Shown here: one piece after another, positions 35,343 through 61,500 of the stretch
Position numbering within the stretch: position 1 is the first letter of the stretch
Layout: every line of letters starts with the position of its first letter
From: Parashewanella curva
GTDB taxonomy: Bacteria; Pseudomonadota; Gammaproteobacteria; Enterobacterales; Shewanellaceae
Assembly (NCBI RefSeq): GCF_003675895.1
Contig: NZ_ML014774.1
Location: 1-64,000, forward strand
Direction: 5' to 3'
Length of the DNA: 64,000 nucleotides
Program-made: the position numbers and the translations under genes
The notes under the pieces: generated by a model
Databases searched by the model: none
Told to the model about the DNA's origin: nothing
The model's input: only the letters and a program-made list of their open reading frames with translations

Positions 35343-35360
35343 GAGGCCAATTAAAGACGC

Positions 35361-35526: not shown

Positions 35527-35672
35527 GGTTTAAGAATATGGATATCGGTAACTGGTATTCATACAATCAACATCGTTTTGTGGTAGGTGCTTGATATTAA
35601 ATAATAACGACAATACGTTGTTCCTTTCGGGAGAGGAAGTGAGAACAATGGTTTAGCTCAGGAGCCTTATCT

Positions 35673-38513: not shown

Positions 38514-38532
38514 AAATTAGTTTTCCCTGGGC

Positions 38533-38572
38533 AAAGCACTGCAATTGACATTTAAATTGCTGTGCTTTTTTT
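38533..38572 (+). terminator. Terminator of the TonB receptor gene
   Basis: AAAGCAC plus GCAATT pairs with AATTGC plus GTGCTTT, with one T-T mismatch, then a run of seven T. Confidence 0.88.
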
Positions 38573-38610
38573 ACAGCCTAATTTCACCAAATGTAAAAAA
38601 TTATTTTAGA

Positions 38611-38628
38611 TAAGGTTGCGGTAATGTA
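38611..38628 (+). promoter_or_regulatory. TAAGGTT direct repeat before the M16 peptidase gene
   Basis: TAAGGTTGCGGTAATGTA: the second half (TAATGTA) starts exactly 11 bp after the first and matches it at 5 of 7 positions. It lies 43 bp before the start codon, overlapping the expected promoter (TATATT at about 38627). Confidence 0.6.
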
Positions 38629-38670
38629 TATTCCGCTTAATTAGGAGTGAAACTTTAAAAGGATACAATC

Positions 38671-41421
38671 ATGGCAACAATGAAAAAAATAGCCGCCGCA
38701 GTTATCTTAGCCTGTGCTACAAGCAGCGTAACAATGTTACCTGCGACAGCAGAAGCTAAACCTAGCATTGTGGATCAGGTTAACGTCAATTACGAAAAAT
38801 TCACTCTAGATAATGGCTTGCGAGTCATTGTTCACTCTGACCATTCAACCCCGAGTGTATTTGTGGGCGTATGGTATGGGGTGGGTTCAAAAGATGAACC
38901 GGCTGGAAAGTCTGGCTTTGCACACTTATTTGAACACTTAATGTTTCAAGGTACCGAAAATCGTGACGGTGAATATTTCTTACCCTTCACTAAAGCCGGT
39001 GCTGTAGGTATGAACGGTACCACCAACCAAGATAGAACCAACTATTATGCAACCGTTCCTAGCTCTGCCGTTGACATGGCGCTGTGGATGGAGTCAGACC
39101 GTATGAGCAACTTGCTTGGTGCGGTAACCAAAGAAGCCTTAGATGAGCAACGTGCGGTTGTAAAAAATGAAAAGCGTCAGGGGGAAAATAGACCCTATGG
39201 TCGCGCATTTGAACGAATCCTTAACGGTATTTATCCGAAAGGTCATCCCTACCAACATACCGTTATCGGATCAATGGATGATTTGAATAACGCATCAATG
39301 GAAGATGTTCATCAGTGGTATAAGGATTACTACGGTGCAAGTAACGCTGTTGTTGTATTATCTGGTGACATCACGACAGAAGAAGCTAGAAAGAAAGTTC
39401 AGCACTACTTTGGTGATGTTCGACCAGGAAAACCGCTGGATAAAATACTGGATTGGCAACCAAAGTTAACTACAGTCAAAAAAGAAGTTATCTACGACAA
39501 AGTAGGCGCAGCTCGTATATATCGAATTTGGCCAATGCCTAACCATAGAACCAAGGACTCAGCACTTTTATATATAGCTGGAGAAGCTTTGGCTGGCGGT
39601 AAAAATTCACCACTTAACAAAATATTAGTTGACGATCTAAAACTGGCTACAAATGTAAGTGCTTCAGCAAACGCACAAATTATGTCTGGTTTGTTTTTTG
39701 TTACTGTCGATGTGCGTCCTGGTGTTGATGTCGCTAAAGTTGAAGAAGTTCTAGATAGAGAATTAGATAAATTTCTTAAAAAGGGGCCTGACAGCGATTT
39801 AATTGAGAATACCGTTTACGGTGTTAACAGTTTTTTTGTGTCATCAATGGAAAGCGCTGGTAGTATTGGTCGCTTTTTAGTAGAGGGCGAACTCTACCAT
39901 AATGATCCACTGAACTTTAAGAAGTCACAAAAATGGTTCAATAGTGCTAATACTAAAAATATCAAAGCAGTAGCCAATAAGTGGTTAGCCAAACCATATT
40001 ACGAGCTTCAGATTTTGCCATCTTCACAAAATACTGCAAAAGCAACAGACGTTGATCGTAGTAAGATCCCAGCTGTTGGAGCAGTTGGTAATGTAAAATT
40101 CCCAAGCGTTGAATCAACTACTTTAGATAATGGCCTTAAAATAGTTGTAGCTAAACGTGATAAGTTGCCTCTTGTTTCCGTTGGGATTGAATTTAAGACG
40201 GGTAGTGCGGCCGACCATGCTTATCGTACAAACACTGCAGCAACGGTATTTGGCCAGTTGAATAAAGGCAGTGATAAATACGATGCTAACGAACTTAGTG
40301 CTGAATTTGATAAGATCGCGATGTCACCTCAAATTCGAGGTGGTACAGAGTCATCATCATTCTCATACGGTATTTTATCTCAAAAGCTAGAAGAGTCTTT
40401 AGAGTTAGCTGCTGAGACTATTATCAACCCTTCATTCCCTAATGATGAGTTAAAGAAATATAAAGACAATGCGGAAGGTTATTTCATTAACTTAGAGCGT
40501 AATCCGGGGAGGGCTGGACGTGGATTGTTCACTCGCGCAATTTACGGAGCTGATTCTCCATTAGGCACCACATGGACTCGCGAAAATCTTAATGCTCTTA
40601 CTCGTGATGATTTGATTAAATTCCATCAGAATGAAATCACGCCACAAAATACAACCATTTACCTCGTTGGTGATATTGACTTAAAACAAGCTAAAAATTT
40701 GGTGGAAGATGCATTTGAAGATTGGAAAAACACTGGCAAATCTCAACTCAAAGCTGTTGGTAAAGCAAAGCCTAATAAGGCACGTGTCATTTTGATTGAT
40801 AACCCAAATGCTATTCAATCTAATATCACCGTTGGACATGCCATTCCAGCATATGACACTAAAACAGCAGAGACGCTTGAGTTAATGAATGCTGCTTTGG
40901 GTGGTGGATTTAGCGGTCGTATTAATATGAATCTGCGTGAGGACAAAGGTTGGACTTACGGTGCGTACTCAAGAATCGGATACAACGACAGTGGTGATAT
41001 GTATATCTCTGCTGGTGGTGGTTTCCAAACTGATAAAACGATTGAGAGTATTAAAGAGCTGAAAAAAGAGTTTACAGACTATGTTCAAAAACGCCCTATC
41101 ACTCATGATGAAATGGCCAGAGATGTAGCAAATAAAACTCGTTCGATTCCATCACGCTATAATTCGAATGCTGGCTTTTCAAGTAGTATACAACGCTCAG
41201 CAAGATTAGGTCTTCCGTTTAATGATGCAGAAAATCGCTCATCTAGATTACAATCTGTTTCAATTGATGATATTAAACATTTTGCTAAAAAGACGATAAA
41301 ACCAGATGCGTTAACTTGGGTTATAGTCGGTGATTTGGATAAAATTGAAAAAGATGTACGAGCACTCAAGCTCGGTGAAGTAGAAGTGTGGGATGCGTAC
41401 GGTAATAAAGTACGTTACTAG
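38671..41421 (+). CDS. Exported M16 (pitrilysin-type) zinc metallopeptidase
   Basis: 916 residues, with a signal peptide (MKKIAAAVILACATSSV ... ATAEA). The first lobe has the inverted zinc motif HxxEH at His85-Glu88-His89 (GFAHLFEHLMFQGT) and a distal Glu expected in the ALDEQRAVVKNEKRQ region. A second, catalytically silent lobe starts near 485 (VESTTLDNGLKIVVAKRDK). It degrades peptides inside a closed chamber in the periplasm. It is transcribed ahead of the ABC exporter genes, with a stable hairpin in between. Confidence 0.93.
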   Translation: MATMKKIAAAVILACATSSVTMLPATAEAKPSIVDQVNVNYEKFTLDNGLRVIVHSDHSTPSVFVGVWYGVGSKDEPAGKSGFAHLFEHLMFQGTENRDGEYFLPFTKAGAVGMNGTTNQDRTNYYATVPSSAVDMALWMESDRMSNLLGAVTKEALDEQRAVVKNEKRQGENRPYGRAFERILNGIYPKGHPYQHTVIGSMDDLNNASMEDVHQWYKDYYGASNAVVVLSGDITTEEARKKVQHYFGDVRPGKPLDKILDWQPKLTTVKKEVIYDKVGAARIYRIWPMPNHRTKDSALLYIAGEALAGGKNSPLNKILVDDLKLATNVSASANAQIMSGLFFVTVDVRPGVDVAKVEEVLDRELDKFLKKGPDSDLIENTVYGVNSFFVSSMESAGSIGRFLVEGELYHNDPLNFKKSQKWFNSANTKNIKAVANKWLAKPYYELQILPSSQNTAKATDVDRSKIPAVGAVGNVKFPSVESTTLDNGLKIVVAKRDKLPLVSVGIEFKTGSAADHAYRTNTAATVFGQLNKGSDKYDANELSAEFDKIAMSPQIRGGTESSSFSYGILSQKLEESLELAAETIINPSFPNDELKKYKDNAEGYFINLERNPGRAGRGLFTRAIYGADSPLGTTWTRENLNALTRDDLIKFHQNEITPQNTTIYLVGDIDLKQAKNLVEDAFEDWKNTGKSQLKAVGKAKPNKARVILIDNPNAIQSNITVGHAIPAYDTKTAETLELMNAALGGGFSGRINMNLREDKGWTYGAYSRIGYNDSGDMYISAGGGFQTDKTIESIKELKKEFTDYVQKRPITHDEMARDVANKTRSIPSRYNSNAGFSSSIQRSARLGLPFNDAENRSSRLQSVSIDDIKHFAKKTIKPDALTWVIVGDLDKIEKDVRALKLGEVEVWDAYGNKVRY

Positions 41422-45722: not shown

Positions 45723-45747
45723 TCAATCTTTTTCCTATACTCTTTTG

Positions 45748-45776
45748 CGCAACTACTTGTTAGTTGCGTTTTTTTG
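45748..45776 (+). terminator. Terminator of the M16-ABC exporter unit
   Basis: CGCAACTA (45748-45755) and TAGTTGCG (45761-45768), then a run of T, 25 bp beyond the OMP gene. Confidence 0.88.
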
Positions 45777-45879: not shown

Positions 45880-47466
45880 ATGTACTGGGATAACTTTACT
45901 AAACTCATCGCACGATTACGGCATGTTTTTCATTTGATGACTTTCTTTCTATTAGTGAGCCATAGCGTACTTGCAATAGAACAAGGTGGATCTGTAAAAA
46001 TCAAAGTTTATGGTGATCACATCTTAATCCCGGTAACGTTTAAAACTGCCGGACTCACTAAACAAACTCACATTATTCTAGATTATGGGAACCACGAAGC
46101 CTTCGGTTTGCATGAAAATGTTTATAACAGCTTAGGGCCACGTCTTGGTAAGAATGAAACTACATTAAAGGTGAATTTTGAAAGCTTTGGTATTGAAGTT
46201 CCAGTTAAGGATATTACTTCAAAATCAGCGGGTTCAACTTCAATGGATAGATTAACAGCAAGATATGATGTTGAACTACAAAATATTGATATTGCAGCCA
46301 TTATTGGTTATCCAATTTTAAAAAAATATAGCATTAAATTGAATTTGAACAAAAATGAAATTCAATTTACTCCCTCATCAATTGATCATGCATCTAAAGC
46401 ACAACAAAGAGCTGATGTCTATATTTCTGATCTATCTGTTTTCCAAAATAATGTTTATGTACCAATCAGTGCAAATGGTAAGCCTATTGGAACAATGGAA
46501 TTAAATACAGTTGGTTACCACACAGTTATCGACCCTGAGGTTGGCAATAAATTTAACATTATCAAAGATATTAAATTGGGGAACACGGATGCATATGCGA
46601 TGTTGTCTGAAATGGTTGCGATCAGAAAACAAACGTTACCTGAGGCTGTAGTGGTTACTCAACCTCCACAAAAGCAAGGAGAAAAGCCTAAAGTCATTTA
46701 TCAACAAGAGTTCCCTAAAGTTCGTGTTATGAAAGCTGGGTTAAGTTTATGGCGCGGCTATGAAGTTGAGTTTGACCCACAAATTGGTTTTATCGCACTT
46801 ACACGAGTTGTTGATAATCAATACTCTGATGCAGATGCCGCTTTTTATGAAGCGTCGTATAAAAAAAGTTGGAATAAGTTAAAGGCTTTTATCGACGCAT
46901 TTCCCTATGACCGTAATGTTGAAGAAGCTGTAGCTGAGATGGCTGAAGTAGGCTTAGCTACAAATGTCTCGCATGATGATTTTATTCAAGTCATAGATCA
47001 AGGCGCTGAAATTCAAAAGACTCGAGCAAAAGCTAGTTATTACTTTGGTTTTGCTTGGTTAGCAAACCAAGCAAAGTTCAATAAAAAACACAATGAAATT
47101 GTGATTTCTTTAGGTAAAAAAGCTCTTGAATATGTTTCCCGTGCTCAGTCACCAAAAGACCGTGAGCCACTACAACGTATGCTAGGTGATGCTTATCTCA
47201 ATAAAAATGATGCTCATACAGCTTGGAAGTATTTCTTGTCGGCTTCATTCAATGGTGATCCTGATCAAGAAGTTCTGACTCGAATGGGTCTAGCGAAAAC
47301 CTATGCTGTGTTAAAGCGCTATCGCCGTGCTTATTCAAACTACCAACGTGTTGCTAGATTAATTCCAGCTCAATTCCATGAGGAAGTAGGGCTTACCAAA
47401 GCTATGGCCGATGTTCGTAAGCATTTGAAACCTAATGATCCGTTATTGGAGAAAAATAATGACTGA
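45880..47466 (+). CDS. Exported protein with two degenerate retropepsin-like domains and TPR-like tail
   Basis: About 528 residues with a signal peptide (HLMTFFLLVSHSVLA). Residues about 25-165 resemble a clan-AA aspartic-protease fold: the usual DT/SGA is LDYGNHEAFGL, and IIGYPILKKYSIKLNLNKNE looks like the family's closing loop. A second copy at about 180-300 has VPISANGKPIGTMELNTVG, where Asp is replaced by Asn. The tail (about 320-520) has helical repeats (RMLGDAYLNKNDAHTAWKYF, RMGLAKTYAVLKRYRRAYSN). It may be a binding scaffold rather than a protease. I use the ATG, not the GTG 12 codons upstream. It overlaps the next gene by 8 bp. Confidence 0.7.
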   Translation: MYWDNFTKLIARLRHVFHLMTFFLLVSHSVLAIEQGGSVKIKVYGDHILIPVTFKTAGLTKQTHIILDYGNHEAFGLHENVYNSLGPRLGKNETTLKVNFESFGIEVPVKDITSKSAGSTSMDRLTARYDVELQNIDIAAIIGYPILKKYSIKLNLNKNEIQFTPSSIDHASKAQQRADVYISDLSVFQNNVYVPISANGKPIGTMELNTVGYHTVIDPEVGNKFNIIKDIKLGNTDAYAMLSEMVAIRKQTLPEAVVVTQPPQKQGEKPKVIYQQEFPKVRVMKAGLSLWRGYEVEFDPQIGFIALTRVVDNQYSDADAAFYEASYKKSWNKLKAFIDAFPYDRNVEEAVAEMAEVGLATNVSHDDFIQVIDQGAEIQKTRAKASYYFGFAWLANQAKFNKKHNEIVISLGKKALEYVSRAQSPKDREPLQRMLGDAYLNKNDAHTAWKYFLSASFNGDPDQEVLTRMGLAKTYAVLKRYRRAYSNYQRVARLIPAQFHEEVGLTKAMADVRKHLKPNDPLLEKNND

Positions 47467-48955
47467 TTCGACAGCAACGAAGTTAAAACAACAATTAAAT
47501 GAGCTGGCGAAAAAAGGAACTAAACATTTATCCCAGCTAAGACACCGTCATGCACTTGAGCAAGGCTGGCAAGCAGCGATAAAAAGTGTTTGGTTTTACC
47601 CTGCAATTTTATTGATCGCAGCTTTGGTTGATGTCGCGGAATTGGCAAAGTTTGAACAGCAACCTTTTTACTACTTTGGTCTGGTCCTCATTCCATTGTT
47701 GGTGTTTGTTGTTCGGTATTTTCAAGCAGCGAGCCAATATGAAATAGACAGAAGGCTTGCTTTAGCGCTTTATGACCATCATTTAGCGTCAAAAGACCGA
47801 TTGCAAACAGCAGATGAGTTTCTGAATATTTCAAACCCATCCAGCTTTGAATTGGCTGCCATTGAGGATTCAAAAACATTCATCGAAAAAGCACTTAATG
47901 CAGAATTACCAAAAAAAGAACTGTCTGCACCAGTACTGACTGTTGCTAAATGGCGCAGTTTAGCCACTGCAGCATCACTGACTGTATTGGCCATTTTATT
48001 ACCTTTTATCAATCTTGGTTTTAATACTGATATTGCTGAAAAGCAAGTTGACAGTACGCAGCTACTTTCGGCAATTAGCACATCACAGGATGCAAACCAA
48101 GTTGAATCTGAGCTTAGTGTGAATAGAAAAGCTTCAGGCATCAAGATGCGTTCATCTCAATCCGATTCAGCATCCGAGGCTGGTGAGGAAGAATCTCAGA
48201 TGAAAGCCAAGCCAAGCCAACCTAAAGCAGCCTCTGATGCATCGAGTCAGAACAGCAGTGCACAGCAAAATCAATCTAATACGGCAGGTAGTGGCGCTTC
48301 TTCACAAAGCTCTTCCTCTAAGCAACAACAGCAAAAGAAAGAAAAGCCTGCTACTAAGAAAAAAACCAATAGCCAAACAAAGCAACAGGATCAGAAAAAA
48401 CAGAAAAATAGTTCTGCTGCGGGCGTTGCAAATGGCAAAGGAAGTACTTCTGGTCAGCAACCTGCCAATTCAGATAAAGCGGCAGCTGAAAATAAAGCAC
48501 GCCAAGAAGATGAATCAGATAGCACTGATGAAGCAGAAGAAGAAGAGGACGAAGAGCAAAAAGCTAATTCATCCTCCGGCCCTAAAAAGAACAAGCGTAA
48601 AGCACCTGTTGATCGCAAGTTAGGAGTAACGGGTCAATCAGAACAAGAAAATGATCTGGCTAATGGCCGTGGTGGTCCTGGTGGATTAAAGAAAACTCGT
48701 GGCGTGGCAGCAATGTTATTGGGTGTGCCTATGCCAGATAGATTGCAAGGTAGTCCAAACCCAGGGCGTACAAAATCGATACAAGAGCAATCACAACCTG
48801 AACAGCAGCAAGTGGCTCAAACAAATAGTGAAGATCATGGTGCAAGAAATGGTGCAGTTGGCGAAGTGCCAGAAAAACCTCTGCTGCCATGGATAAAGCA
48901 GGTTATTACGAAATATTTTGTCGCACAACGTTCAGACGAAACAACAAAACAATAA
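47459..48955 (+). CDS. Membrane protein with long low-complexity charged tail
   Basis: About 498 residues. Three hydrophobic segments lie in the first 210 residues (VWFYPAILLIAALVDVAEL, YYFGLVLIPLLVFVVRYF, AASLTVLAILLPFINLGF). A disordered stretch of about 200 residues follows, rich in Ser, Gln, Lys and Glu (EEEEDEEQKANSSSGPKKNK). A conserved-looking end follows (GVAAMLLGVPMPDRLQGSPN and LPWIKQVITKYF). No family is recognised. Large membrane proteins with charged tails accompany MoxR/DUF58/VWA clusters in other phyla, so a scaffold role is plausible. GGAG precedes the ATG; the longer frame upstream overlaps the previous gene. Confidence 0.65.
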   Translation: MTDSTATKLKQQLNELAKKGTKHLSQLRHRHALEQGWQAAIKSVWFYPAILLIAALVDVAELAKFEQQPFYYFGLVLIPLLVFVVRYFQAASQYEIDRRLALALYDHHLASKDRLQTADEFLNISNPSSFELAAIEDSKTFIEKALNAELPKKELSAPVLTVAKWRSLATAASLTVLAILLPFINLGFNTDIAEKQVDSTQLLSAISTSQDANQVESELSVNRKASGIKMRSSQSDSASEAGEEESQMKAKPSQPKAASDASSQNSSAQQNQSNTAGSGASSQSSSSKQQQQKKEKPATKKKTNSQTKQQDQKKQKNSSAAGVANGKGSTSGQQPANSDKAAAENKARQEDESDSTDEAEEEEDEEQKANSSSGPKKNKRKAPVDRKLGVTGQSEQENDLANGRGGPGGLKKTRGVAAMLLGVPMPDRLQGSPNPGRTKSIQEQSQPEQQQVAQTNSEDHGARNGAVGEVPEKPLLPWIKQVITKYFVAQRSDETTKQ

Positions 48956-48980: not shown

Positions 48981-49991
48981 ATGGAACAGCATTCAATCAA
49001 CGTAAACGAGCAAGCCGAAAAGTTCAAACATACATTTACTCAAATTAAGACCGAAGTTAGCAATATGATGGTGGGGCAAGACGATATCATCGAAGGTGTA
49101 CTCACGGCATTACTAGCAGGTGGTCATGTTTTACTTGAAGGTGTACCAGGTCTTGGTAAAACCATGTTGGTTAGCTCGTTGAGTAAAGCTGTTAATTTGC
49201 AATTCTCACGTATCCAGTTTACACCGGATATGATGCCAGCCGATATCCAAGGTACAACAGTATTGACTGAGACTGAGAGTGGTGGTCATGAATTGACTTT
49301 CCAAGAGGGTCCAATCATTTCTAATTTAGTACTTGCAGATGAAATCAACCGTGCAACGCCTAAAACACAGTCAGCATTGCTTGAGGTGATGCAAGAGAAG
49401 CAAGTTACCGTAGGCCGCCGTACGATTAAAATGGATGAGCCCTACTGTGTAATGGCAACTCAAAACCCTGTTGAACAAGAGGGTACTTATCCATTGCCTG
49501 AAGCACAGCTTGACCGTTTCTTATTTAAACTGGTTGTTGGTTATCCAACCGAACAAGACTACCACACGATCATTGACCGCACGACGAGTGGTGAAAAAGT
49601 TGAAATCGCTCCAGTAACTGATGCTGAAACTTTACGTGAAATGCGTGACATCGTTCGTTCTGTACCCGTTCCAGAAGCCGCTAAGTCTTACGCAATTCGC
49701 CTTGTTATGGGGACTCAGCCACACAGTGAATACGCGCCTGAGTCTGTCAATGCCTATGCGGCTCTAGGTTCATCACCTCGTGGAATCCAAGGTCTTATGT
49801 TAGCGGCTAAGGTCCAAGCTTTATTAAATGGTCGCTTTGCTGTTAGTTGCGATGATGTTAAAGCCATTGCTACGCCAGTACTGCGTCACCGTTTAGTGCT
49901 GAACTTCCATGCTCAAGCTAATGGTGTAAGTGCAGACTCTCTAATCACAGATGTTCTCAATCATGTGCCTGTTCCAAATACTGTCTCATAA
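48981..49991 (+). CDS. MoxR-family AAA+ ATPase
   Basis: About 336 residues. Walker A is at 54-61 (GVPGLGKT), Walker B is LVLADEINRATPKTQSALLE, and sensor 1 is ATQNPVEQEGTYPLPEAQ, with sensor 2 in GSSPRGIQGL. MoxR ATPases act with VWA proteins to mature or insert cofactors into enzyme complexes. Start chosen at ATG after AAGG; the 21 codons upstream overlap the preceding gene. The DUF58 and VWA genes follow in order. Confidence 0.95.
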   Translation: MEQHSINVNEQAEKFKHTFTQIKTEVSNMMVGQDDIIEGVLTALLAGGHVLLEGVPGLGKTMLVSSLSKAVNLQFSRIQFTPDMMPADIQGTTVLTETESGGHELTFQEGPIISNLVLADEINRATPKTQSALLEVMQEKQVTVGRRTIKMDEPYCVMATQNPVEQEGTYPLPEAQLDRFLFKLVVGYPTEQDYHTIIDRTTSGEKVEIAPVTDAETLREMRDIVRSVPVPEAAKSYAIRLVMGTQPHSEYAPESVNAYAALGSSPRGIQGLMLAAKVQALLNGRFAVSCDDVKAIATPVLRHRLVLNFHAQANGVSADSLITDVLNHVPVPNTVS

Positions 49992-50053: not shown

Positions 50054-50965
50054 ATGGCATCACCAACTTTAACATTTAATGAGCTATTCGATGCTGACTT
50101 TTTGTCTGCGCTTCAACACTTTTCATTACGCGTGGAAAAAGTGCAAAAGGGCGGTCGTTTGGCCGAGCAAAAAACGGCTGCTAGGGGACAAGGTTTAGAA
50201 TTTGCGGATTTCAAACCTTATGTAGCAGGGGATGATTTGCGAGCCATCGACTGGAACATTTATCGTCGACTTGGGCGTGTGTTTGTTCGAATTTTTGAAG
50301 AGCAGCAAGACATGCCGGTTTACTTCTTAATTGACGTGTCAGCTAGCATGTTCTTAGAAAATAAACCAAGAATTAATGCAGCTCTACAAACCAGCTTGGC
50401 ACTGTCTTCTATTAGTTTAAGTCAGCATGACAGCGTTGGCTTGTTCCCATTTGCTGATGAAATGCAGGTGAAAGTAAAGTTCTCATCGGGTAAGCGAAAT
50501 GTAATGCGTATCGCAAAGCATTTGTCTGAATTAGAAGCGCAAAATCAAACCAATTTAACAACCAGCATCCATCATCTAGCGAACTTAAATCTACGTAAAG
50601 GTTTGGTTGTGGTGATTTCTGACTTTTTTGATGACTCAGGCATTGAAAAGGTCGTGGACTCGTTGAAGTTGCTACGCCACAAGTTACTGCTTGTTCAATT
50701 AACAAAAGCCAGTGATGCCGATCCATCTTTAAATGATGAACTTTATGGTGACATTAAACTACAAGATTGTGAAACCGATGGTTCTGCTGAGATAACTATT
50801 ACTCCAGCTCTGCTCGCTAAATATAAAGAAATCTACCAATCATTCAACCAACGATTGTTGGACTTTACCAACCAATATGGTGCTGGCTTTGTTCAAATTG
50901 ATACTGATGAAGATGTATTAGAACAGTTGTCTAGCTTATTTGAATCCGGAGGTTTGGTTCTATGA
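50054..50965 (+). CDS. DUF58-domain protein
   Basis: A 303-residue soluble protein. The DUF58 signature (GRGLEFADFKPYVAGDD-like, then DLRAIDWNIYRRLGRVFVR) is followed by a VWA-like fold with a MIDAS start (FLIDVSASMFLENKPR). Such proteins are the regular partners of MoxR ATPases, located between moxR and the BatA-type genes. Its stop overlaps the next start (ATGA). AAGG precedes its ATG. Confidence 0.93.
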   Translation: MASPTLTFNELFDADFLSALQHFSLRVEKVQKGGRLAEQKTAARGQGLEFADFKPYVAGDDLRAIDWNIYRRLGRVFVRIFEEQQDMPVYFLIDVSASMFLENKPRINAALQTSLALSSISLSQHDSVGLFPFADEMQVKVKFSSGKRNVMRIAKHLSELEAQNQTNLTTSIHHLANLNLRKGLVVVISDFFDDSGIEKVVDSLKLLRHKLLLVQLTKASDADPSLNDELYGDIKLQDCETDGSAEITITPALLAKYKEIYQSFNQRLLDFTNQYGAGFVQIDTDEDVLEQLSSLFESGGLVL

Positions 50966-52668
50966 ACTTCATCAATTTAAGCCCTAGCTTAGTTATTGCA
51001 GGTCTTGTTGCAATCGCTGGCTTATTGTTTGCGCTTCAACAGTTACGTACTCGTTACCGTACCGTTGTTGTTCCAACATCTATGTTTTGGCAGCAAGCAG
51101 CACAAGATGCGCCTGTACGAGTGTTCAGACAAAAATTTAAGCACTTATTGGCTTATTTATTAACGTTGTTGATAGCCAGTTTACTTTGGCTCGGCTTTTC
51201 TGAGCCAGAAGTAAATAAGGAAGCCAGTAACGAATATTATGTCCTGTATTTAGATGGCAGTGCAGCCATGACGCAGGGCGATCACTTTGAGCAAGCAGTT
51301 AGCGTTCTTGAAAACGATTTAGCAAGTTTACCAGCTAATCGTAGGGAAGTTATTTTCGGCGGTGAGTTTCACACAAAAATATTAAATGAAAGTGAGCAAT
51401 TAGCCGTTTTAGAGCCTCGATTAGCCAAAGTTTCTCCACAAGCTGTACCAGATTCGTTTGCAGAACAATTAACGCTTTTGTCTCAAAGATTCAATGATAA
51501 TACGCCTGTCAACGTTATTGTGTACGGTAAGTCTGCATTACCTGCTTCGTTACAAGACAATATCAGTGTATCCCATGCAACGTCATTTGAAGAGACTGAA
51601 AATAATGCGGGACTAGTAAACTTAGGTATTAATCTCGCTGCTTCGGGTAAGGCAAACTTAATTGATGTCTTAGTAGAAGCGAAAACTAACACTGAATCTG
51701 AGGTGAAGCTTGCCGACTTAGAGTTTTTAGTGGGTGAAGCTTTCTTTACACCTGATCAAATCCAAGAATTAGGTAAGGGTAAATTCGTGTTACGTGATGT
51801 CCCTCTCGTTGGAGAGCAATTTACCGCACGCCTTAAAAATAGTGATGCTTTCATGATTGATGACAGTGCAAGTATCGCTTTACCTAAAAGCTCAATTGTT
51901 AATGTAGCCGTTTCTTCTACGGTACATAACTCCGTATTTGCAGTAGTCAATTCCGATCCGAGCGTTCGTATGGTTGGCGCTGAGGATGCAGATGTCGTGA
52001 TCCGTCATGTCGGTGAAAATTTTGGTAACCAGTTACCCGCGCTAGAATTTTCTCAAATGTCGAATCAAACGCCAGCGTTTAAACTCTTTTATCAAGGTGA
52101 TAAAAGTACTGAACAAGCGTTGGCGGACAGTCTGCATGAATTAGCCCTAGATCAAATCGATGCTAATGGATTGGCTACTGCATCTTCTCAACCAATCAGT
52201 GTCGAACTTAGCCATGCTGCTACACCAAGTGTTCAAGTGTGGAATGCTTTGCTTCAACCTGAGTTTAACTTTACGCAATCAAAATCTTATCCAGTGTTTA
52301 TCGCTCAATCCATTCGATGGTTAAGTGGCCGTCATGGCTGGCAGCCTTATTTAAGCGCTGGTCAAAATGTATATCACCAAGATGGTTTGTATGCTCTATC
52401 TAGTATGCAAAGCCGTTTTGAACAAAGTTTAAATGGTAGTTTGTATCTGGGTAAAGCTGGCGGTATTGAACTAGCAGGGCAAAGAGCTTTTGTATCCTTA
52501 ACTAATGCCGATGTGACCACAGCTACTGCCGACAGCACTGAATATAGCGTTGGCTCGGTAAATTCGGTACTCAGTAATTTCAGTGAATTTATAACATTAT
52601 TGATCAGTTTAATCTTGTTATTGCTGATTGCTGAGTGGGTTGTCTATCAACGTGGCCTAATGCCGTAG
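50962..52668 (+). CDS. BatA-like membrane protein
   Basis: 568 residues. It opens with the BatA N-terminal segment: one helix (LVIAGLVAIAGLLFALQQL), then VVVPTSMFWQQAAQDAP, then a second helix (LLAYLLTLLIASLLWLGF). A VWA-like domain follows (YYVLYLDGSAAMTQGDHF) in which the MIDAS DxSxS is replaced by DGSAA, so metal binding is doubtful. A C-terminal helix (FITLLISLILLLLIAEWVV) anchors it again. GGAGG precedes the ATG. Confidence 0.85.
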   Translation: MNFINLSPSLVIAGLVAIAGLLFALQQLRTRYRTVVVPTSMFWQQAAQDAPVRVFRQKFKHLLAYLLTLLIASLLWLGFSEPEVNKEASNEYYVLYLDGSAAMTQGDHFEQAVSVLENDLASLPANRREVIFGGEFHTKILNESEQLAVLEPRLAKVSPQAVPDSFAEQLTLLSQRFNDNTPVNVIVYGKSALPASLQDNISVSHATSFEETENNAGLVNLGINLAASGKANLIDVLVEAKTNTESEVKLADLEFLVGEAFFTPDQIQELGKGKFVLRDVPLVGEQFTARLKNSDAFMIDDSASIALPKSSIVNVAVSSTVHNSVFAVVNSDPSVRMVGAEDADVVIRHVGENFGNQLPALEFSQMSNQTPAFKLFYQGDKSTEQALADSLHELALDQIDANGLATASSQPISVELSHAATPSVQVWNALLQPEFNFTQSKSYPVFIAQSIRWLSGRHGWQPYLSAGQNVYHQDGLYALSSMQSRFEQSLNGSLYLGKAGGIELAGQRAFVSLTNADVTTATADSTEYSVGSVNSVLSNFSEFITLLISLILLLLIAEWVVYQRGLMP

Positions 52669-52678: not shown

Positions 52679-55174
52679 ATGGAATTATCATTTTTACACG
52701 CCTATTTTGGCATATTACTTTTCGGATTGCCTGCGCTTTGGCTGCTATGGAAAAAACGTGGGGATAATAAACACAAATTGATCCGCGCAGCCGTGCTTGC
52801 TTGTGTAATCGTCGCACTTACTCAACCTGTATTGATTAACTCAAGTAATCAGGCTCATCATGTTATTGTTGTTGATCAATCAGACAGTCTTTCGGCTGAT
52901 GCACAACAAAATGCCCAATCATTGTTTAATGAGCTCGCAGCAAAAGTATCTGCGGATGATGAATTGACTCTGGTTCAGTTAGGCGGCCAAAAACACAGCT
53001 TTGAGGCTGAAGATCACATACTGATCAGTGATGCATCCAATACTTCATCGTTATCACAAGCTTTAGCACATGCGATTCAGACTATTCCTTTAGGCGTAAA
53101 CAGCTCAGTGACTCTGATTACTGATGGTTTAGCCACAGATCAAAATTGGAGCAAAATTATTGCCCAATATCAGGATCGAGGTATTCCGGTTCATACCTAT
53201 GACCTAGGACGTGATTATTCGGATCTTTATATTGCTGATATCAAAGCTCAAGCAGTTCGAGTTGGTGAAAAAGCCAGTGTATCTGTTGAAGTGGCTGGTA
53301 ATGCAAAATCAGTAGCGGTTAACCTATTTAGTCATGATTCGCTATTGGTAAAATCTCCTGCGTTTGCTGTTAATGGCCAAACTCGCATTGAATTAAACTT
53401 TGAAGCGGAAAATGCGGGGTTCCATCCATTGCGTGCTGAACTTGAGGTGATTTCTGGTGAAGAGTCGGATGCCTCTAATAATCAACTCTCTACGGTACTT
53501 GCGGTACAAGATGGTATTAAAATTTTGTATTTAGGTGATCGCCAAATTGGTGCTGAACAACACTTAGGTCGATTACTCGGTGCAGGTTTTGAGATTGAAT
53601 CGGTAAATGCCACAGAACTCACAGCTGACTTTGATTTTGCTCAATACGATGTTGTATTACAAGATGACTTGCCATCGAATCAAATTTCAAAAGCAGTTCA
53701 AGAAAAGCTAGTGGCTGCAGTGCAGAATCAAGGTGTTGGTTTGCTACATTCTGGTGGTGAATCGGCTTTTGCTGGCGGTGGTTATTTTGATACACCAATC
53801 GCTGATGCACTACCTGTTCAGTTAAAGCAAAAAGATGACAAAAACGATCCAAGTGTTGGCCTTGCCATCATCATAGACACCTCTGGTTCTATGGCGGGTA
53901 GTCGTATTGAGTTAGCCAAGCAAATGGCACGCATTGCTGTTCGTCGCTTACAGCCACATGACCGTATTGGTATTGTTGAGTTTTATGGTGCTAAGCACTG
54001 GGCAATTCCAATGCAGCCTGCATCCAATAAAATTGAAATTGACCGAGCGATTGGCCGTATGAAAGCCATTGGTGGAACCGTTTTATTTCCGGCTATTCAA
54101 GAAGCTTACTATGGTTTGAAAAACATCAATACCCGCTTTAAACACATCATCATGATCACCGACGCAGGTATTGAAGATGATGATTACGAAGGTATGTTAC
54201 GTCGTATTGCTAAAGACAATATTAACGTTTCGACTATTTTAGTCGGTCAGGGTGGCCATAACCTTATTATGTCTGACATGGCGAATTGGGGTAAGGGTCG
54301 CTTCTATTCTGTGGGCAATGAATTCAACCTTGTAGAAATGATCCTAAAGCAACCTTCGACTAAAAAACTTCCAGCGTACAAACGTGGTGCGTTTTCAATG
54401 ACAGCACAAGGTGGATCTGGCTGGTGGGGTGATGTTAAAAAAGACAACCTTCCTCAACTGGCAGGCTATGTACAAGTAGGTAGAAAAGCAGCCGCTGAAG
54501 TGTTGCTTGAAGAATCGGTCGGTAAATATCCTCTTCTGTCTTCTTGGCAATATGGTTTAGGTCGTGTTACCGCATTAATGACAGAGCCTGTTGGTCATGG
54601 TACGCAACACTTTGTTAATTGGGAGCAATATGGTCAATGGCTAGGTCGCATCATTCGCAAAACAGCAAGCAACCAGCATGATTTTCATTTAACGGTTAAA
54701 CGTAAGCATGATCAATTATCGATAGCGGCTCAACGTTTATCACATGATTTAGAGCTCACTCCCAGTGTGCGAATTCTAGACTGGGATGGTTCAAGCAATA
54801 GTCAACCGATCCAATTTGATGAAAAAGCGCCTGGTCTATTTGTAGCGAACCTTGATTTTCCAATGGGGCAAGACGCTTTAGCTGAAGTGAAAGGAAACAG
54901 GAACTGGCAACGAAGTGCGCTTCGCTCGTATTCAGATATCGCGAAAGAAAACCAAGTGAGCCCATCAAAGTTATTGAATTTCGAGAAATTATCCGAATTA
55001 ACAAATGGACAATTCCTAAACAATATCGAAACCAATGATTGGCAGTTGAAAACCAAACAAGGTGATATGGCATTTATTGTTACCAAACTTTGGCCGTACT
55101 TACTGTTATTGGCATTGTTGTTATATATCGCAGATTTAGTATACCGCCGCTGGCCGAAGAGCACTCGACGTTAA
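52679..55174 (+). CDS. VWA-domain membrane protein with amidotransferase-like fold
   Basis: 831 residues. Two N-terminal helices (FGILLFGLPALWLLWKK, IRAAVLACVIVALTQPVLI) are followed by a first VWA-like region with a MIDAS-like DQSDS. A glutamine-amidotransferase-like segment comes next (GLLHSGGESAFAGGGYFD). A full VWA domain with a good MIDAS motif follows (IIIDTSGSMAGSRIELAKQ, then MITDAGIEDDDYEG). The chain ends with a last helix (LWPYLLLLALLLYIADLVY). The order matches proteins that end MoxR-DUF58-BatA clusters. Last gene of this operon; no strong terminator follows. Confidence 0.9.
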   Translation: MELSFLHAYFGILLFGLPALWLLWKKRGDNKHKLIRAAVLACVIVALTQPVLINSSNQAHHVIVVDQSDSLSADAQQNAQSLFNELAAKVSADDELTLVQLGGQKHSFEAEDHILISDASNTSSLSQALAHAIQTIPLGVNSSVTLITDGLATDQNWSKIIAQYQDRGIPVHTYDLGRDYSDLYIADIKAQAVRVGEKASVSVEVAGNAKSVAVNLFSHDSLLVKSPAFAVNGQTRIELNFEAENAGFHPLRAELEVISGEESDASNNQLSTVLAVQDGIKILYLGDRQIGAEQHLGRLLGAGFEIESVNATELTADFDFAQYDVVLQDDLPSNQISKAVQEKLVAAVQNQGVGLLHSGGESAFAGGGYFDTPIADALPVQLKQKDDKNDPSVGLAIIIDTSGSMAGSRIELAKQMARIAVRRLQPHDRIGIVEFYGAKHWAIPMQPASNKIEIDRAIGRMKAIGGTVLFPAIQEAYYGLKNINTRFKHIIMITDAGIEDDDYEGMLRRIAKDNINVSTILVGQGGHNLIMSDMANWGKGRFYSVGNEFNLVEMILKQPSTKKLPAYKRGAFSMTAQGGSGWWGDVKKDNLPQLAGYVQVGRKAAAEVLLEESVGKYPLLSSWQYGLGRVTALMTEPVGHGTQHFVNWEQYGQWLGRIIRKTASNQHDFHLTVKRKHDQLSIAAQRLSHDLELTPSVRILDWDGSSNSQPIQFDEKAPGLFVANLDFPMGQDALAEVKGNRNWQRSALRSYSDIAKENQVSPSKLLNFEKLSELTNGQFLNNIETNDWQLKTKQGDMAFIVTKLWPYLLLLALLLYIADLVYRRWPKSTRR

Positions 55175-55453: not shown

Positions 55454-55537
55454 TTGAGTTCAGTCTTGAGTTAAGTGTTCCTTATAACACACGGATGCGT
55501 GCCCCAAATATCAAAAAGAATTAAGGGTTTTGAGACT

Positions 55538-58500
55538 ATGTTTAATGTTAAAAAGACGTTGCTGGCCACTACAATTTCAGCGGTTCTATGTTTTCCTTCG
55601 TATGCGGCAGTGTCTGTAAATGACATTGCCACTGTAGTAAAGGATGTAAGTGGTGTTGAAAATAAAGGTATTCATGATCTTTATAATAAGTCCATATTGG
55701 AAGATAAAGACATTAGCCAATCCATTACCAAACTTAATCAATTTTCAAAAAACAAAAAAAACAAATTAACTGAAAGGGCTAATGCACAATTCACCATTGG
55801 TCATTTGTATTGGCGTCATGGCGACCCTGTTAAGGCTCAAAAAGCGGTGGACGTTGGACTTAAATTAGCTAAAACCTCTGATGGTTTCTTACTAAAAGCG
55901 CGTCTGCTTGACGCTCAAGGTAAGCCAGAAAAAGCCATAAATTGGTATCAAAAAGCCATTGATTTGACCAAGAGTAATGTTGAAAAAGAATTCATATTGA
56001 TCCGCCTAACCATGATTAATGCAACCGAAAATGCCGATGCATTAGTTGAGCTGGCTAATACCCGTGATCAAGCATTCAAAAACCGTGCAGCGGTTGTTTT
56101 GGCTATTATGGGCTATCAGAAGAAAGCGCTAGAGTTATACAAAGTTGAAGAACAAGCCAATAAACCGTTCCAGCAATATATTCGTTTGGCTGATTGGGCT
56201 ATCAAATCAAAAGATTACAAAATTGCTCAAAAAAATGCTTGGCAAGCATTTGAACATGCAGCTGCAAAATATGATTTACGCTATGCGCTTTCTATTTTGA
56301 TTGAGTCATATCGTGATGCCAATGAATTAGAAGCCCTTTTACCACTTTTAGAAACTTATCCAAATGATTTAGATCTTCAGCAAGCACGTGTTGATGTTCT
56401 TGTTGAATTAAGTCGTTATGATGAAGCTATTGACCTGTTTAAAAATACATCTTCTGATGAGCTAGAGTTAGCACAACGGCAAAGACTCATCAAATTGTAT
56501 CTTGCGGCAGATCGTCCTCAAGATATGATCAATGAATATAACAATCAAATCAAAAAAGAATCTGATGTGGTTGCGTGGTATGACGGTCTTGCATCCCATT
56601 ATATGAATATTGGGGAAACCGATAAGGCATTAAATGTTTGGCAGCAGATGGCTTCGAATAATGAGAAAAATATATATTCGTTGGTTGATGGTGCTGAAAG
56701 CATGGTGAAAATGGGTTTTGCCGATGAAGCCATCTCATTCGTTACCAAACATGCCAACAACAAAGGTTTTGCTGTACCCGCCAATTTCTTTTTATTCGAA
56801 ACTTACCTAAATCGTGGTCAAGAACAAGAAGCCACACATGCATTAGAGCGTTTGGAAACCCTTCTACCAGATACTGCTGGTGAGCATAAAGACATTGCTG
56901 ATGCTTACGAGCGTTTATCTCGTGCAGATAAAGCCCTAGCCATCTACCAACGCCTTGATCAGCAAGGTCAGGGCTTAGGTTATGATGAACGAATGCGTCT
57001 TGCTTGGTTATATAGCATTAATGATCAAAAGCAACAAGCACTGGATCTTTGGCAAGATATTTGGACAGGCGTAAAAAGTCCTGCTCGCCGCAGTTTCTCT
57101 GAAGCTCAATTGATGTTGTTAGCCGCTGAATTAAATAAATTGGCTGATATCGTTGTCGATATTGAAGAAAAGCTCATTCTGAATAAAGCCAACGAAAACG
57201 AAATCAATCTTCTTGTTCGTATTTATGTTGAAGTTGGCGACCAATTATCAGCAATTGAAGTGATTGAGGAGTTTGCTCGCCGAAGCAACATGAATGAAGT
57301 CGATAAGCTCAAACAATTAAGTAAAGTCTACTTAATGCTGGAAGACCCGAAATCGTACGATAAAGCCTTACGACAACTTCTTGTCGCAGAACCTGATTTT
57401 AAAACAGAGCATATCCGTAACATCATTTTGAATATGCTTACTAATGAGTTAGAGCAAGATAAAGACAAGCGTTTGGCTGAGGTCAATAAGTTGCTTAGCA
57501 ATTTGAAAGTAGATAATGCCGCGCAGGTCGCAGGTGAATTTGAAGCAGGCATTATGACCATGGGCGGCTTTCCTGAGCGAGCCATTGAAAGTTATCGTCG
57601 TTCGATTGCAGAAACACCTACAATGTCAGATAACCTGTTATTGATGTCTGATCTTATGAAAGATCACGGTCGTCGTGATGAAGCCGTGTCCATTTTGCAA
57701 TACGTAGCTGAACATGCTGATGGTGATAACGAATTCGTAGTCGCCATTGATGGCATCATCAATATGATCGGTGCTCGTCGCTTTGGTGAAGAATTGACAC
57801 CTGAAATTCAAGGTACCTTCCGTTGGGTTCATCGTTTAGTTCTTGAGCGTATCACTTCAAGAGCAGACAAATTCTATCTTTACACACTGTTAGCTGAGAT
57901 TTCTCAAGAAACCAATGATAGAGAAGGGGAATTTATTGCGGTAGAAAACTCGTTAGCACAAGCAGGCATTCGCCGCTCAAGTATTTTACGTGAGTTGATT
58001 ACTTTATCTACCGCTACAAACAGTGTTACGGATATTCGGTTGGGTGATGAAGAACGCAAAGTCACTTACGGTCGACGTCTCATTGGTTTAAAACAAGAAC
58101 TTCCACCTGAAATTTATATCGATTTGAGTAAGACATTACTCAGTAAAGGTAATGTGCTAGAAGCTGAAAAGTCTTTTGATATGATCACTGATATCACAGG
58201 GTTGATTGAAGTTGATAAAACTAAAGCACAAATGTTTCTCGATGCAGGCTATGTCAATAAAGCGTTGATCTCTTTTAATAAAGCATTAAGCCGTAATCGC
58301 TCTGATCTTGAACTTCTTAAAAGTACAGCATTGTTGCGTGAAGAAATCGGTCAAGATGACATTGCTAATACATGGTATTGGAATGCGTTAAATGGACTAA
58401 TTCAGCAACAACCAGCAGTGCTTCGTAATGGTGTTCCACAACAGAAAAGAACAAACTTTTGGGAGCCCAAAATTGACACTACTGTCAGTCGTTCATTCCG

Positions 58501-61500
58501 AAATCATTTTGAATCTCTCGCAGAGGGTTTCATTGTCACTTGGCCAACAGACGCCACAAAAGCTAAAAATAGACTTCAAGAATTACTGTCCTTATTTAAT
58601 TCTGAACTGGCGAATGTTCAACAACTTCAAGTGCAAGAGGAACAATTGCCTTTAAATCAATATTCACGATTGAATCAAACTTCAAAATTGGTCAGACGTG
58701 TTGCCACTTCTACGGATAATAGTGAAATTGCTTTGCAAATTGATACAAAGTTACTTTCATTGTTTAAAAATGATGAGTTACTCCAAACTGATATTGCACT
58801 GCATTACCATAGAGCCGGATATTTTAAGGAATTAGCCGAATTAGAAGCGAGCATTGGTAAGAAACATCAAGTGTTTGTGAGTGAGCCAGATAATTCATCT
58901 GTTTTATCAAATGCTTTAAATTATGCAGAATACCAAAATGATGTTGAGACACAATTTCAATTGCTAAGTGTATCCAGGGACAGCGATAAAACTTCAAGTT
59001 TATTTAATCGATTAATTCAAAAGCAAGAATTAGTAGAGGTTTTTGCTCGTGGTCTATCTTTACTCTCACCAGAGCAGTTCAAATCAGTTGTTGGTTCTAA
59101 GTTGACCAATGATGGTTCAATGGATCAAGCTTATTTCAATATTGCGATTACCAATTTAGACTTATATCGAAAAGTAGAGAAAACTTTAGGAAGAAAACTA
59201 TTATCTACAGATAAGATGGCTGAATATATTGATAAATATGATCCCAAAAAGGATCCAAGAACATCGTATATAGCCTCAAAAAATATTAACTCTATTATAG
59301 CTGACTCATTATCTATTTCAGAACAAATCGATTATGCACGAAAACAAGTTGCTAAATCGACCGCAGGGTATGAGGTATTGTCACATTTCGATCTTATTAA
59401 AAAGGGTTTGAAGCAACACCTTTCTGATGAGGATATGCAAAAATTTGAATTATTAATTAAAGAGCTATTAGATCGAATTGATTTCAAAAATACTTATGAT
59501 GTTCCACAATTAGCAGTAGGTTTTATTGTACCAAATGCACATAAGACACATAAAAAACTGCTTTCTAACACCATTAACTATATCGGACGTAAAGCAAAAT
59601 TTGGCACATCCTATACTGATATGGCTGAATTAATATTTAATGGCTCTGATGAAGAGTTATTGTTTAAAATATTCGAGTTTAAAGCTAAGAATCCAACTAT
59701 TGGTTATCAGCTTAACACCTTAGTTGCAGATAACTTCTCATCTATTGTTGATAAATACTTGTTTGATATTGATGGTGACAAGAAGATATCTCTTGATGAA
59801 GCCAAAGCCTTTTACAATGCGAAATATCCATCGAGATTTTATGAGTTAAGCTCGCAAGAATATACACAACAATTATCTTTATTAAAAAAATTAATAAAGA
59901 ATTACCCTGAAGAAAAATCGTTTAAACTGGCTGAGCTGGATGTAGCTCTAAAGTTAGGCGACAAAATTTTGGTTGATCAAAGTCTGCTTAATTATTATAA
60001 GTTTGATCCTAGGGAGCCTTTTATACGTGCAGCTTTATATGAGAAGTTAATTAGTGAGCATAAATACACTAAGGCTTTAGCATTATTGCAAGATGGGGGG
60101 GAGGATCTTCGTTTACCTGAAGTTAAGGGTAAATTAAGCCAGCAAGCATTGTTGGACAGAAATACGTCCATTTCCAGTGCGCATTTGTACAAGGTTTTGG
60201 CCAAGGTTGACGGGTCTGGTGTCCCTAGTGGTCAGACACAAACTAATAACTTACGTTATATCGATCAGTTAGTGGCGAGTGTAAAAGCAAAGGACAGCCT
60301 AAAAGTCCAAGCTAATCTTAGAGCTTTATGGAGACATGTTCTTTCTGGTTCAACCAAAACTGGCAATTTTGGTCGTGGTATTTCTTACAATGATGCATTG
60401 CAATGGGATACAGACATTTCTAAGGAAAGTGTGACTAACACAAGTCAAATTGTAAATCCTACAATTGCTAATGATTTTATTTCACAACTTGATACGCCGT
60501 CAGAAAATAAACAAAATCTCTTTGATATTATTGCTCAATACAAATTTGCTTCCGTTGAATTTGATAAGTTTATTCGTGCGTTTCCTTTCAAAAAGCAAAG
60601 AGAAGTGGGTAAGTTTTATTCACTCATCGCTGATTCGATCATTCAAAACAATGGCTTTGATAAAAAATTAATACAGTTAGAGCGAAAATTGCTCAAAGGT
60701 ATAATTTCATCACATGACTTAAATTTATATTTAACTCTAGTTGACAAACAGCCTAAAGAGGTTTCCGACAAGGTTATTGATGCTTTAAAAGGTATTTCTA
60801 ATAATCTATTTGCTTCTAGTCACTGGCAAACATCTAAGTTAGCTAATTTGTTTGCAAAGCACGGTGAACTCTCTATTGCAAGCGAACATTATCTATTATT
60901 AGTAGCGCAATTGGTACAGTATAATGAGTTTTCAACGACTCCAAACTATGACGCTTCTAATAGCGCACCGGCTGTTACAGTTTTAGAAATAGTAAAAAGT
61001 ATTAAGAGCAATTATCAACCATCACAGGCTCAATCCTTATTTAGACAAATTGCTAGTATTGTCAAACGTGCAGATAAGAATGCCGCTGTTGATAGTTATT
61101 ACAATGCATTTGTCTTAAAGGGGAGTCTTTTAGTTGCCTCTGAAAAACCCATTGAATTTGCTAGCTCTATTTCGGAAAATTCTGTTAGTGAAGATCCTAA
61201 GTTGAAGTTCCAGTCTCCACAACGTATAGCTCTTATCGAAGCATATAAACAGGCAGGGGATTTCGATAAAGCCTATAAGTTGCTGAGCCAGTATTTTGTA
61301 ATCAATAGCATTTTTGAGCAGGACTTGGATGAATCTGAATCATTTCGAGTTATATCAAATGTGCAATATACGGCAAAGGTTTTAGGCATATCTGCAGCAC
61401 TGACTGTAAAGCAGTTTCGCCATAAGTTCCTAACACCATGGCAACAAATTTTCTTTAATTCAGATAACTTATTAAACGACGAAAACAGTGATTGGTTATT

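What the first reader, a model, noticed from the sequence alone, without database searches (positions are those of the whole stretch)
45880..48955. Two unrecognised genes at the head of the MoxR operon: a degenerate double retropepsin-TPR protein and a membrane protein with a disordered charged tail
The first has two aspartic-protease-like repeats in which the catalytic Asp-Thr/Ser-Gly is altered (DYG, NTV), so it may bind peptides without cutting. The second carries about 200 residues of Ser/Gln/Lys/Glu-rich disorder between membrane helices and a conserved end. The genes overlap and directly precede moxR, suggesting they are the substrate or scaffold of the MoxR/VWA machine.
Basis: partly seen in the sequence, partly recalled or inferred. 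Interest (0 to 1): 0.58.

Follow-up and report, generated by a model that had tools for sequence, protein, structure and literature searches.

The report
Dead-protease protein paired with MoxR machine
Two unnamed genes in front of a MoxR ATPase operon encode an exported protein with the shape of a digestive protease but without its cutting residues, and a membrane anchor with a long floppy tail; the pair recurs in front of the same operon in distant bacteria, which points to an undescribed cell-envelope machine.

Summary
Gene A (45880-47466) is an exported protein with two retropepsin-like lobes and a C-terminal TPR array. AlphaFold2 gives pLDDT 88, the solved B. fragilis endopeptidase 9iy9 matches residues 33-308 at Z 15.5, and profile comparison with two-domain bacterial retropepsins gives 96.8% against 0.4% or less for controls. 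The second-lobe catalytic Asp is absent in 46 of 46 homologues. Gene B (47459-48955) has three predicted membrane helices, then about 300 mostly disordered residues, predicted periplasmic, with a conserved motif.

Pfam and NCBIfam name neither family. A and B head the order A-B-MoxR-DUF58-BatA-VWA-giant TPR in Gammaproteobacteria, Planctomycetota and Verrucomicrobiota. In an evenly drawn Planctomycetota sample, 27 of 27 uncensored full-length A genes are followed by B and MoxR.

Best reading: A is a peptide-binding pseudoprotease and, with B's tail, forms the periplasmic client-capture side of a Bat-type MoxR machine. Client and A-B contact are inferred. A, being exported, is unlikely to be MoxR's direct substrate. 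No held paper names MoxR with retropepsin.

The parts
45747..45769 (+). terminator-like hairpin with T-run between the TolC-type gene and A
   Evidence: pattern scan (6 such sites found vs mean 8.6 in shuffles, so not significant as a class) and sequence
45880..47466 (+). gene A: exported two-lobed retropepsin-fold pseudoprotease with C-terminal TPR, 528 aa
45880..45978 (+). A: N-terminal signal-like segment (about residues 1-33)
   Evidence: hydrophobic stretch 15-33; cleavage after VLA by recalled rule, not predicted by a tool
45976..46413 (+). A: retropepsin-like lobe 1 (residues 33-178)
   Evidence: AF2, 9iy9 alignment spans 33..308, hhalign 86.6%
46081..46083 (+). A: D68, lobe-1 catalytic position (D 31, E 11, other 4 of 46)
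46414..46809 (+). A: retropepsin-like lobe 2 (residues 179-310)
   Evidence: AF2, hhalign 88.7%
46504..46506 (+). A: N209, lobe-2 catalytic position, never Asp (0 of 46)
46519..46521 (+). A: H214, His or Asp in 46 of 46
46810..47463 (+). A: helical and TPR region (residues 311-528); residues 411-500 are the most conserved part
47459..48955 (+). gene B: inner-membrane protein with long disordered tail (upstream ATG 47435 possible)
47573..47629 (+). B: membrane helix 1 (residues 47-65, 506-aa numbering)
   Evidence: hydropathy
47666..47722 (+). B: membrane helix 2 (78-96)
   Evidence: hydropathy
47735..47914 (+). B: conserved loop, predicted cytoplasmic, DRLxTADEF motif (residues 101-160)
   Evidence: conservation 0.76 at 121-130; charge rule
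47960..48016 (+). B: membrane helix 3 (176-194)
   Evidence: hydropathy
48017..48634 (+). B: disordered Ser/Gln/Lys/Glu-rich tail, predicted periplasmic (195-400)
   Evidence: AF2 pLDDT under 50 for most of 225-424; composition
48659..48769 (+). B: conserved tail motif NGRGGPxxxKKxRGVAxxLLGVPxPDRxxG..PG (409-445)
48887..48949 (+). B: C-terminal helix (485-505)
   Evidence: AF2
48981..49991 (+). MoxR AAA+ ATPase
   Evidence: PF07726 8.3e-63
50054..50965 (+). DUF58 protein, soluble, VWA-type with DVSAS motif
50962..52668 (+). BatA-like membrane protein, degenerate metal-site motif DGSAA
   Evidence: PF07584 26.7 bits, cut-off 25.9
52679..55174 (+). VWA plus glutamine-amidotransferase-like membrane protein, motif DTSGS
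55475..61996 (+). giant TPR protein, 2173 aa, last conserved gene of the order
33254..41421 (+). possible associates: response regulator, histidine kinase, TonB-dependent receptor, M16 peptidase
   Evidence: Pfam; homologues in 19, 8, 26 and 16 of the 78 related loci

Best explanation
A and B are the periplasm-facing front end of a Bat-type MoxR machine. Shown by sequence and model: A is an exported, single-chain, two-lobed retropepsin fold followed by TPRs, without the catalytic Asp pair. B has three predicted membrane helices and a long disordered tail with a conserved motif. Both are linked to MoxR-DUF58-BatA-VWA-giant TPR across phyla. Inferred: A's cleft no longer cuts but still binds extended peptide, as a sensor or holdase for an envelope client. 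A's TPR face, its most conserved part, docks it to the complex, most likely through B. B's cytoplasmic loop reports to the MoxR-DUF58 pair in the cytoplasm, whose ATP cycle remodels the membrane VWA proteins and through them the periplasmic client.
For: Fold. Remote homology with controls: (96.8%; reversed retropepsins, BatA, VWA and own TPR all 0.4% or less); lobe 1 vs lobe 2 of A 78.9%. Catalytic loss. Linkage: A in 41 and B in 70 of 78 MoxR-anchored loci, A called directly upstream of B in 37 of those 41; 27 of 27 uncensored full-length Planctomycetota A genes followed by B and MoxR. Tail motif: conservation 0.73 in 32 loci scored A-positive vs 0.54 in 17 scored A-negative. That grouping was by locus; three of the 17 (L035, L040, L049) were later found to have A elsewhere in the genome, as their tails had suggested. 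By genome, the LGVPxPD tail type is in 35 of 36 B rows with A in the genome (one, L103, by eye) and 0 of 13 without. TPR is the most conserved part of A (0.57 vs 0.42-0.47 elsewhere). A relative of the BatA-type protein, Borrelia BB0173, has its VWA domain in the periplasm (abstract of PMC5700661).
Against: No client and no experiment. The A-B contact is not modelled. The A/tail association rests on 2 independent changes on well-supported branches (4 on the best tree), too few for significance. B occurs without A in the genome in 13 of 49 scored B rows, so A is not essential to the machine. Lobe 1 keeps an acidic residue in 42 of 46, so some other chemistry is not excluded. B's topology rests on hydropathy and charge alone.
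Confidence: 0.5

Rival explanations
1. A and B are the client that the MoxR/VWA machine assembles (as MoxR or NorQ partners mature their neighbours), not part of the machine.
For: MoxR ATPases are thought to mature dedicated protein complexes (start of abstract of PMC3893208; NorQ/NorD, start of abstract of PMC9976466; both in the listing). B persists where A is missing and A-B can leave the MoxR locus (L188).
Against: A shows no cofactor site or enzymatic signature of its own; A is sometimes present as 2-3 tandem copies, odd for one subunit of a matured enzyme; A is exported and MoxR cytoplasmic.
Confidence: 0.2
2. A is an active, unconventional protease or hydrolase that uses the acidic residue at 68 with His/Asp 214.
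For: D/E at 68 in 42 of 46 and H/D at 214 in 46 of 46; histo-aspartic protease, an active variant as recalled, is among the fold matches.
Against: Residue 214 lies five positions after the catalytic slot; by motif counting (recalled numbering) it matches the substrate-binding Asp30 of HIV protease. The second catalytic Asp is never present, and DTG/DSG is in no member.
Confidence: 0.12
3. The whole 33-62 kb + strand run is one uptake or processing system: a TonB receptor brings in a protein or peptide, the M16 peptidase cuts it, A holds fragments, the two-component pair senses it, and MoxR remodels it.
For: Pfam identities in the window; response regulator homologues in 19, histidine kinase in 8, M16 in 16 and TonB receptor in 26 of 78 related loci; M16 directly beside B in several loci without A.
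Against: A and M16 mostly exclude each other in the related loci (M16 in 2 of 37 with A, 11 of 21 without, Fisher 8e-5, not corrected for phylogeny). TonB receptors are common genes. The ABC exporter genes are not shared (permease 0, ATPase 1 locus). The planctomycete loci show none of these neighbours within their flanks.
Confidence: 0.13
4. A and B are hitchhikers that sit before moxR by chance.
For: Only 1 of 146 genomes of the window's own family has A.
Against: Same order across phyla.
Confidence: 0.02

Closest known systems
Two-domain bacterial retropepsin-like aspartic proteases (Pfam PF13650 members; solved example 9iy9)
   Same: Two-lobed single-chain fold, motif positions align over the whole 33-310 part
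   Different: A lacks the Asp pair and DTG, carries TPRs, and no Pfam aspartic-protease model is among the families hit by the 46 members at E 0.1
Rlo secreted retropepsin-like peptidases of Pseudomonas aeruginosa (PMC12239564, outline and abstract seen)
   Same: Exported retropepsin fold; one is encoded in an operon with an inactive transglutaminase membrane protein
   Different: Rlo are described as proteases; operon partners are RloB and RloC, not MoxR; no TPR is mentioned in the abstract
Bat (aerotolerance) operons: MoxR-DUF58-BatA-BatB with TPR BatC/BatE (order recalled; PMC3557215 and PMC5700661 abstracts seen)
   Same: MoxR, DUF58, BatA-type and VWA membrane proteins and TPR proteins together
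   Different: Here an A-B head, a VWA-amidotransferase protein and a giant TPR protein; I know of no report of a retropepsin-like part in Bat operons (recalled; one search found no paper with both words)
MoxR-vWA ternary systems of Kaur et al. 2020 (PMC7159879, passages seen)
   Same: MoxR with a VWA partner and a third component thought to be remodelled
   Different: Third components there are VMAP, inactive STAND, FtsH or beta-propeller; the text has 0 occurrences of BatA and DUF58
DUF4175 membrane proteins (PF13779)
   Same: Similar layout of N-terminal membrane helices and a related loop in one planctomycete protein
   Different: Profile comparison 3.5% (28.2% for the best single sequence); 1 of 50 B members hits at E 0.0027

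Membership tests
Retropepsin-like aspartic proteases (fold superfamily) | Two-lobed aspartic-protease fold | tested here: met
   AF2 pLDDT 88.4; 9iy9 Z 15.5, rmsd 3.3, 213 aligned; plasmepsins and pepsins at Foldseek E about 3e-6
Retropepsin-like aspartic proteases (fold superfamily) | Sequence-profile relation to known members | tested here: met
   hhalign 96.8%, 236 columns, five unrelated or reversed controls 0.4% or less; only 14.1% against the one-domain set
Active retropepsins | Catalytic Asp in both lobes, DT/SG motif | tested here: not met
   Lobe 2 Asp in 0 of 46; DTG/DSG in 0 of 46
Active retropepsins | Proteolytic activity | not testable with these tools
   needs purified protein
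Pfam Asp_protease_2 (PF13650) | Match over the curated cut-off | tested here: not met
   No match in the window genome and not among the families hit by 46 A members at E 0.1
TPR proteins | Tandem helical TPR array | tested here: met
   Z about 16 to designed TPRs over residues 383-520; TPR_7 in 31 of 46 members at E 0.1
Bat-type MoxR operon | MoxR, DUF58, BatA N-terminal and VWA proteins together | tested here: met
Bat-type MoxR operon | BatD partner | not tested
   no dedicated search was made
DUF4175 (PF13779), for B | Profile match | tested here: inconclusive
   1 of 50 members at 0.0027; hhalign 3.5% to a four-sequence set
MoxR-vWA ternary conflict systems | VMAP, inactive STAND, FtsH or propeller third component | tested here: inconclusive
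   No such Pfam profile among A, B, DUF58, BatA and VWA proteins; the MoxR itself matches bpMoxR at 56.5 bits but AAA_3 better

The most novel reading that the evidence does not exclude
A is a peptide-reading pseudoprotease receptor: its disarmed aspartic-protease cleft grips the conserved linear motif of B's floppy periplasmic tail (NGRGGP...LGVPxPD) and releases it when a client peptide competes. This would pass an envelope signal through B to the cytoplasmic MoxR ring, a protease fold turned into the sensor of a trans-envelope AAA+ machine.
Probability: 0.15. Interest if true: 0.82.

Novelty: new variant of a known kind. Interest (0 to 1): 0.56.

Why it matters
What MoxR-DUF58-VWA operons of the Bat type do is an open question; a Leptospira bat deletion gave no oxidative-stress phenotype (abstract of PMC3557215). 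A conserved, exported, catalytically dead protease tied to this operon gives the machine a testable periplasmic end and a candidate client-binding part. It would also add a pseudoprotease family to a fold known mainly for cutting.

Tried and rejected
1. My first guess that B is a DUF4175 protein: not upheld; left inconclusive.

2. Direct sequence searches with A alone found nothing outside the window's genome; only the MoxR-anchored scan brought in homologues. A profile search of 369 genomes of the class gave full-length A only in the window's own genome; the other 21 matching genomes gave TPR-only or short retropepsin matches.

3. First hhalign tries with too few retropepsins were weak (62.9%); the set was widened from 3 to 9 sequences. 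The one-domain set stays weak (14.1% for both lobes together).

4. Planctomycetota rows left out of the 27 of 27: three genomes matching only A's C-terminal extra domain (G907, G796, G776), one partial hit at a contig end (G869), two A genes cut by a contig end (L195, L197). 32 of 199 genomes matched in all. Three of the 27 (L064, L071, L088) had also been found through MoxR; 24 were fetched from this sample alone.

5. Tail versus A: two loci with an A-type tail but no A in the genome (L060, L082) have B at the very edge of their contig, where A would lie off the assembly; they were not scored. L091 is a second, differently placed B in a genome that has A; it was scored and is the 1 of 36 without the A-type tail. 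In one search the groups were by locus and so L035, L040 and L049 were counted as A-negative; one search showed A elsewhere in their genomes. Independent changes are too few for a test.

6. Neighbours of the separated A genes look like unrelated genes by eye and gave no clue to function.

7. The fold of the extra C-terminal domain of planctomycete A was not predicted; 4 of 46 members hit Omp28 (best 6.5e-4). No model of an A-B complex could be made. B's model was not searched for folds.

Full report
What is there. In the window, A (45880-47466), B (47459-48955), moxR (48981-49991), a DUF58 gene, a BatA-like gene, a VWA-amidotransferase gene and a 2173-residue TPR gene follow each other on the + strand. 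A hairpin with a T-run lies between the upstream TolC-type gene and A. Pfam and NCBIfam give no family for A or B, nor for 46 A and 50 B relatives beyond weak TPR and chance hits.

Relatives. Searches with A by sequence failed. A scan of named genomes with the window's MoxR gave 78 loci. Of these, 41 hold an A gene and 70 a B gene, with 49 A and 74 B open frames. The order A-B-MoxR-DUF58-BatA-VWA-giant TPR recurs in Gammaproteobacteria, Planctomycetota and Verrucomicrobiota. Some loci carry two or three A genes in a row (L047, L050, L054, L070), others two B genes (L039, L040, L045, L049). A is rare around the window: 1 of 146 genomes of its family, its own.

Fold of A. AlphaFold2 on the 46-row alignment gives pLDDT 88.4 and pTM 0.82. 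Foldseek ranks plasmepsins, pepsin-like enzymes and the B. fragilis endopeptidase 9iy9 along with TPR proteins. The second aligner gives 9iy9 Z 15.5 over 213 residues for model residues 33-308, and TPRs Z about 16 for residues 383-520. A profile of residues 33-310 matches nine two-domain retropepsins from related genomes at 96.8% over 236 columns. Controls with reversed retropepsins, BatA, VWA and A's own TPR stay at or below 0.4%. The two lobes of A match each other at 78.9%.

Catalytic site. In 46 aligned sequences the lobe-1 position is D in 31, E in 11 and other in 4; the lobe-2 position is G 28, S 7, N 6, K 2, A 1, T 1, gap 1, and never D. None has DTG or DSG. Residue 214 is H in 24 and D in 22. 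By recalled numbering it corresponds to the substrate-binding Asp30 of HIV protease, not to a catalytic residue. The pseudoprotease reading follows from the missing pair; peptide binding is inference.

Conservation of A. Mean column identity is 0.57 in the TPR part (411-500), against 0.44, 0.42 and 0.47 for lobe 1, lobe 2 and the linking helices. The TPR face is thus the likelier contact to the conserved partners.

B. Three hydrophobic helices, a positively charged N-terminus (11 K/R against 3 acidic in residues 1-50) and an odd number of crossings put the long tail in the periplasm. The tail is mostly below pLDDT 50 but holds a motif at 409-445 with conservation about 0.7. BatA-like and VWA proteins have two N-terminal helices with positively charged loops between them and one C-terminal helix, so their large parts are also predicted periplasmic; for a Borrelia relative this was shown (abstract of PMC5700661).

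Linkage tested without MoxR bait. Of 199 Planctomycetota genomes, 32 matched the A profile. Dropping three C-terminal-only genomes and one partial leaves 28 genomes and 29 places; two are cut by contig ends. All other 27 have B and MoxR directly behind A. Exceptions lie outside that sample. In one verrucomicrobial genome A-B stands without MoxR within the fetched stretch while a MoxR operon lies on another contig (L188, L094). In Porticoccus the order is permuted (L029, L190). In five related gammaproteobacterial genomes whose B has an intact upstream flank without A (L035, L039, L040, L045, L049), A lies elsewhere, as single or tandem copies.

Tail and A. In loci with A the tail reads NGRGGP...KK-RG-A...LGVPxPD; in loci without A it mostly reads KK-RG...LAVPM-D. 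Three loci in the alignment with an A-type tail but no local A (L035, L040, L049) suggested A elsewhere, and a whole-genome search found it there. These loci had been counted as A-negative, which grouped by locus. By genome, 35 of 36 B rows with A in the genome have the A-type tail (L103 by eye) and 0 of 13 without. On a tree of B's N-terminal part this amounts to 2 independent changes on well-supported branches and 4 on the best tree, too few for a test. It is a lead, not proof of contact. The window's own B groups by its N-terminal part with A-less Shewanella and Alteromonas copies, with an open branch, yet has the A-type tail and A.

Wider neighbours. The window also has a response regulator, histidine kinase, TonB receptor and M16 peptidase upstream, with homologues in 19, 8, 26 and 16 of the 78 loci. 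M16 is in 2 of 37 loci with A and 11 of 21 without, among 58 loci with B and more than 2 kb upstream of it (Fisher 8e-5), not corrected for phylogeny. The MacB-type exporter between them is not shared. I count this as an associated but separate layer.

Mechanism. The most likely picture is a cytoplasmic MoxR ring with DUF58, membrane VWA proteins that carry its work across, and A with B's tail as the periplasmic part that recognises a client. Shown: fold (by prediction), catalytic loss, linkage. Predicted: topology. Inferred: peptide binding, A-B contact, client and direction of signalling.

Literature. No held paper contains both MoxR and retropepsin. Searches with DUF58, BatA, DUF4175 and TPR terms returned Bat, Bifidobacterium and MoxR chaperone papers (listings seen). 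Abstracts and outlines were seen for PMC3557215, PMC5700661 and PMC12239564, passages for PMC7159879. The library holds open-licence papers only, so absence from it is not absence from print.

Verdict. Observation confirmed; interpretation partly supported. A is a pseudoprotease family within a known fold that neither Pfam nor NCBIfam names, and the operon a new variant of the Bat type.

Noticed in passing
L100, L088, L080 and other planctomycete A proteins, last about 270 residues: Planctomycete A proteins carry an extra C-terminal domain (770-860 aa in all) with weak Omp28 hits in 4 of 46 members; three genomes match only in this domain.
   Followed up: partly
L026, L034, L068: A second MoxR gene sits between a response regulator and a histidine kinase beside a TonB receptor, separate from the B-MoxR-DUF58 operon.
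   Followed up: no
L232:6539-13301: Three tandem A genes of about 680-690 aa stand alone among genes that look like housekeeping genes by eye, in a genome whose MoxR operon has two B genes and no A.
   Followed up: partly
window 55475-61996: A 2173-residue TPR protein closes the operon; its homologues of about 1600-2170 aa are part of the conserved order.
   Followed up: no
window 50962-55174: The VWA-amidotransferase protein keeps the metal-site motif DTSGS while the BatA-like neighbour has DGSAA, so perhaps only one of the two membrane VWA-type proteins binds metal.
   Followed up: no
window 15498-15974, - strand: Five tRNA-Asn genes with the same anticodon stand in tandem.
   Followed up: no
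window 41484-44368: A MacB-type permease, ABC ATPase and HlyD adaptor precede the TolC-type gene and the A operon; permease and ATPase are not shared by the related loci.
   Followed up: partly
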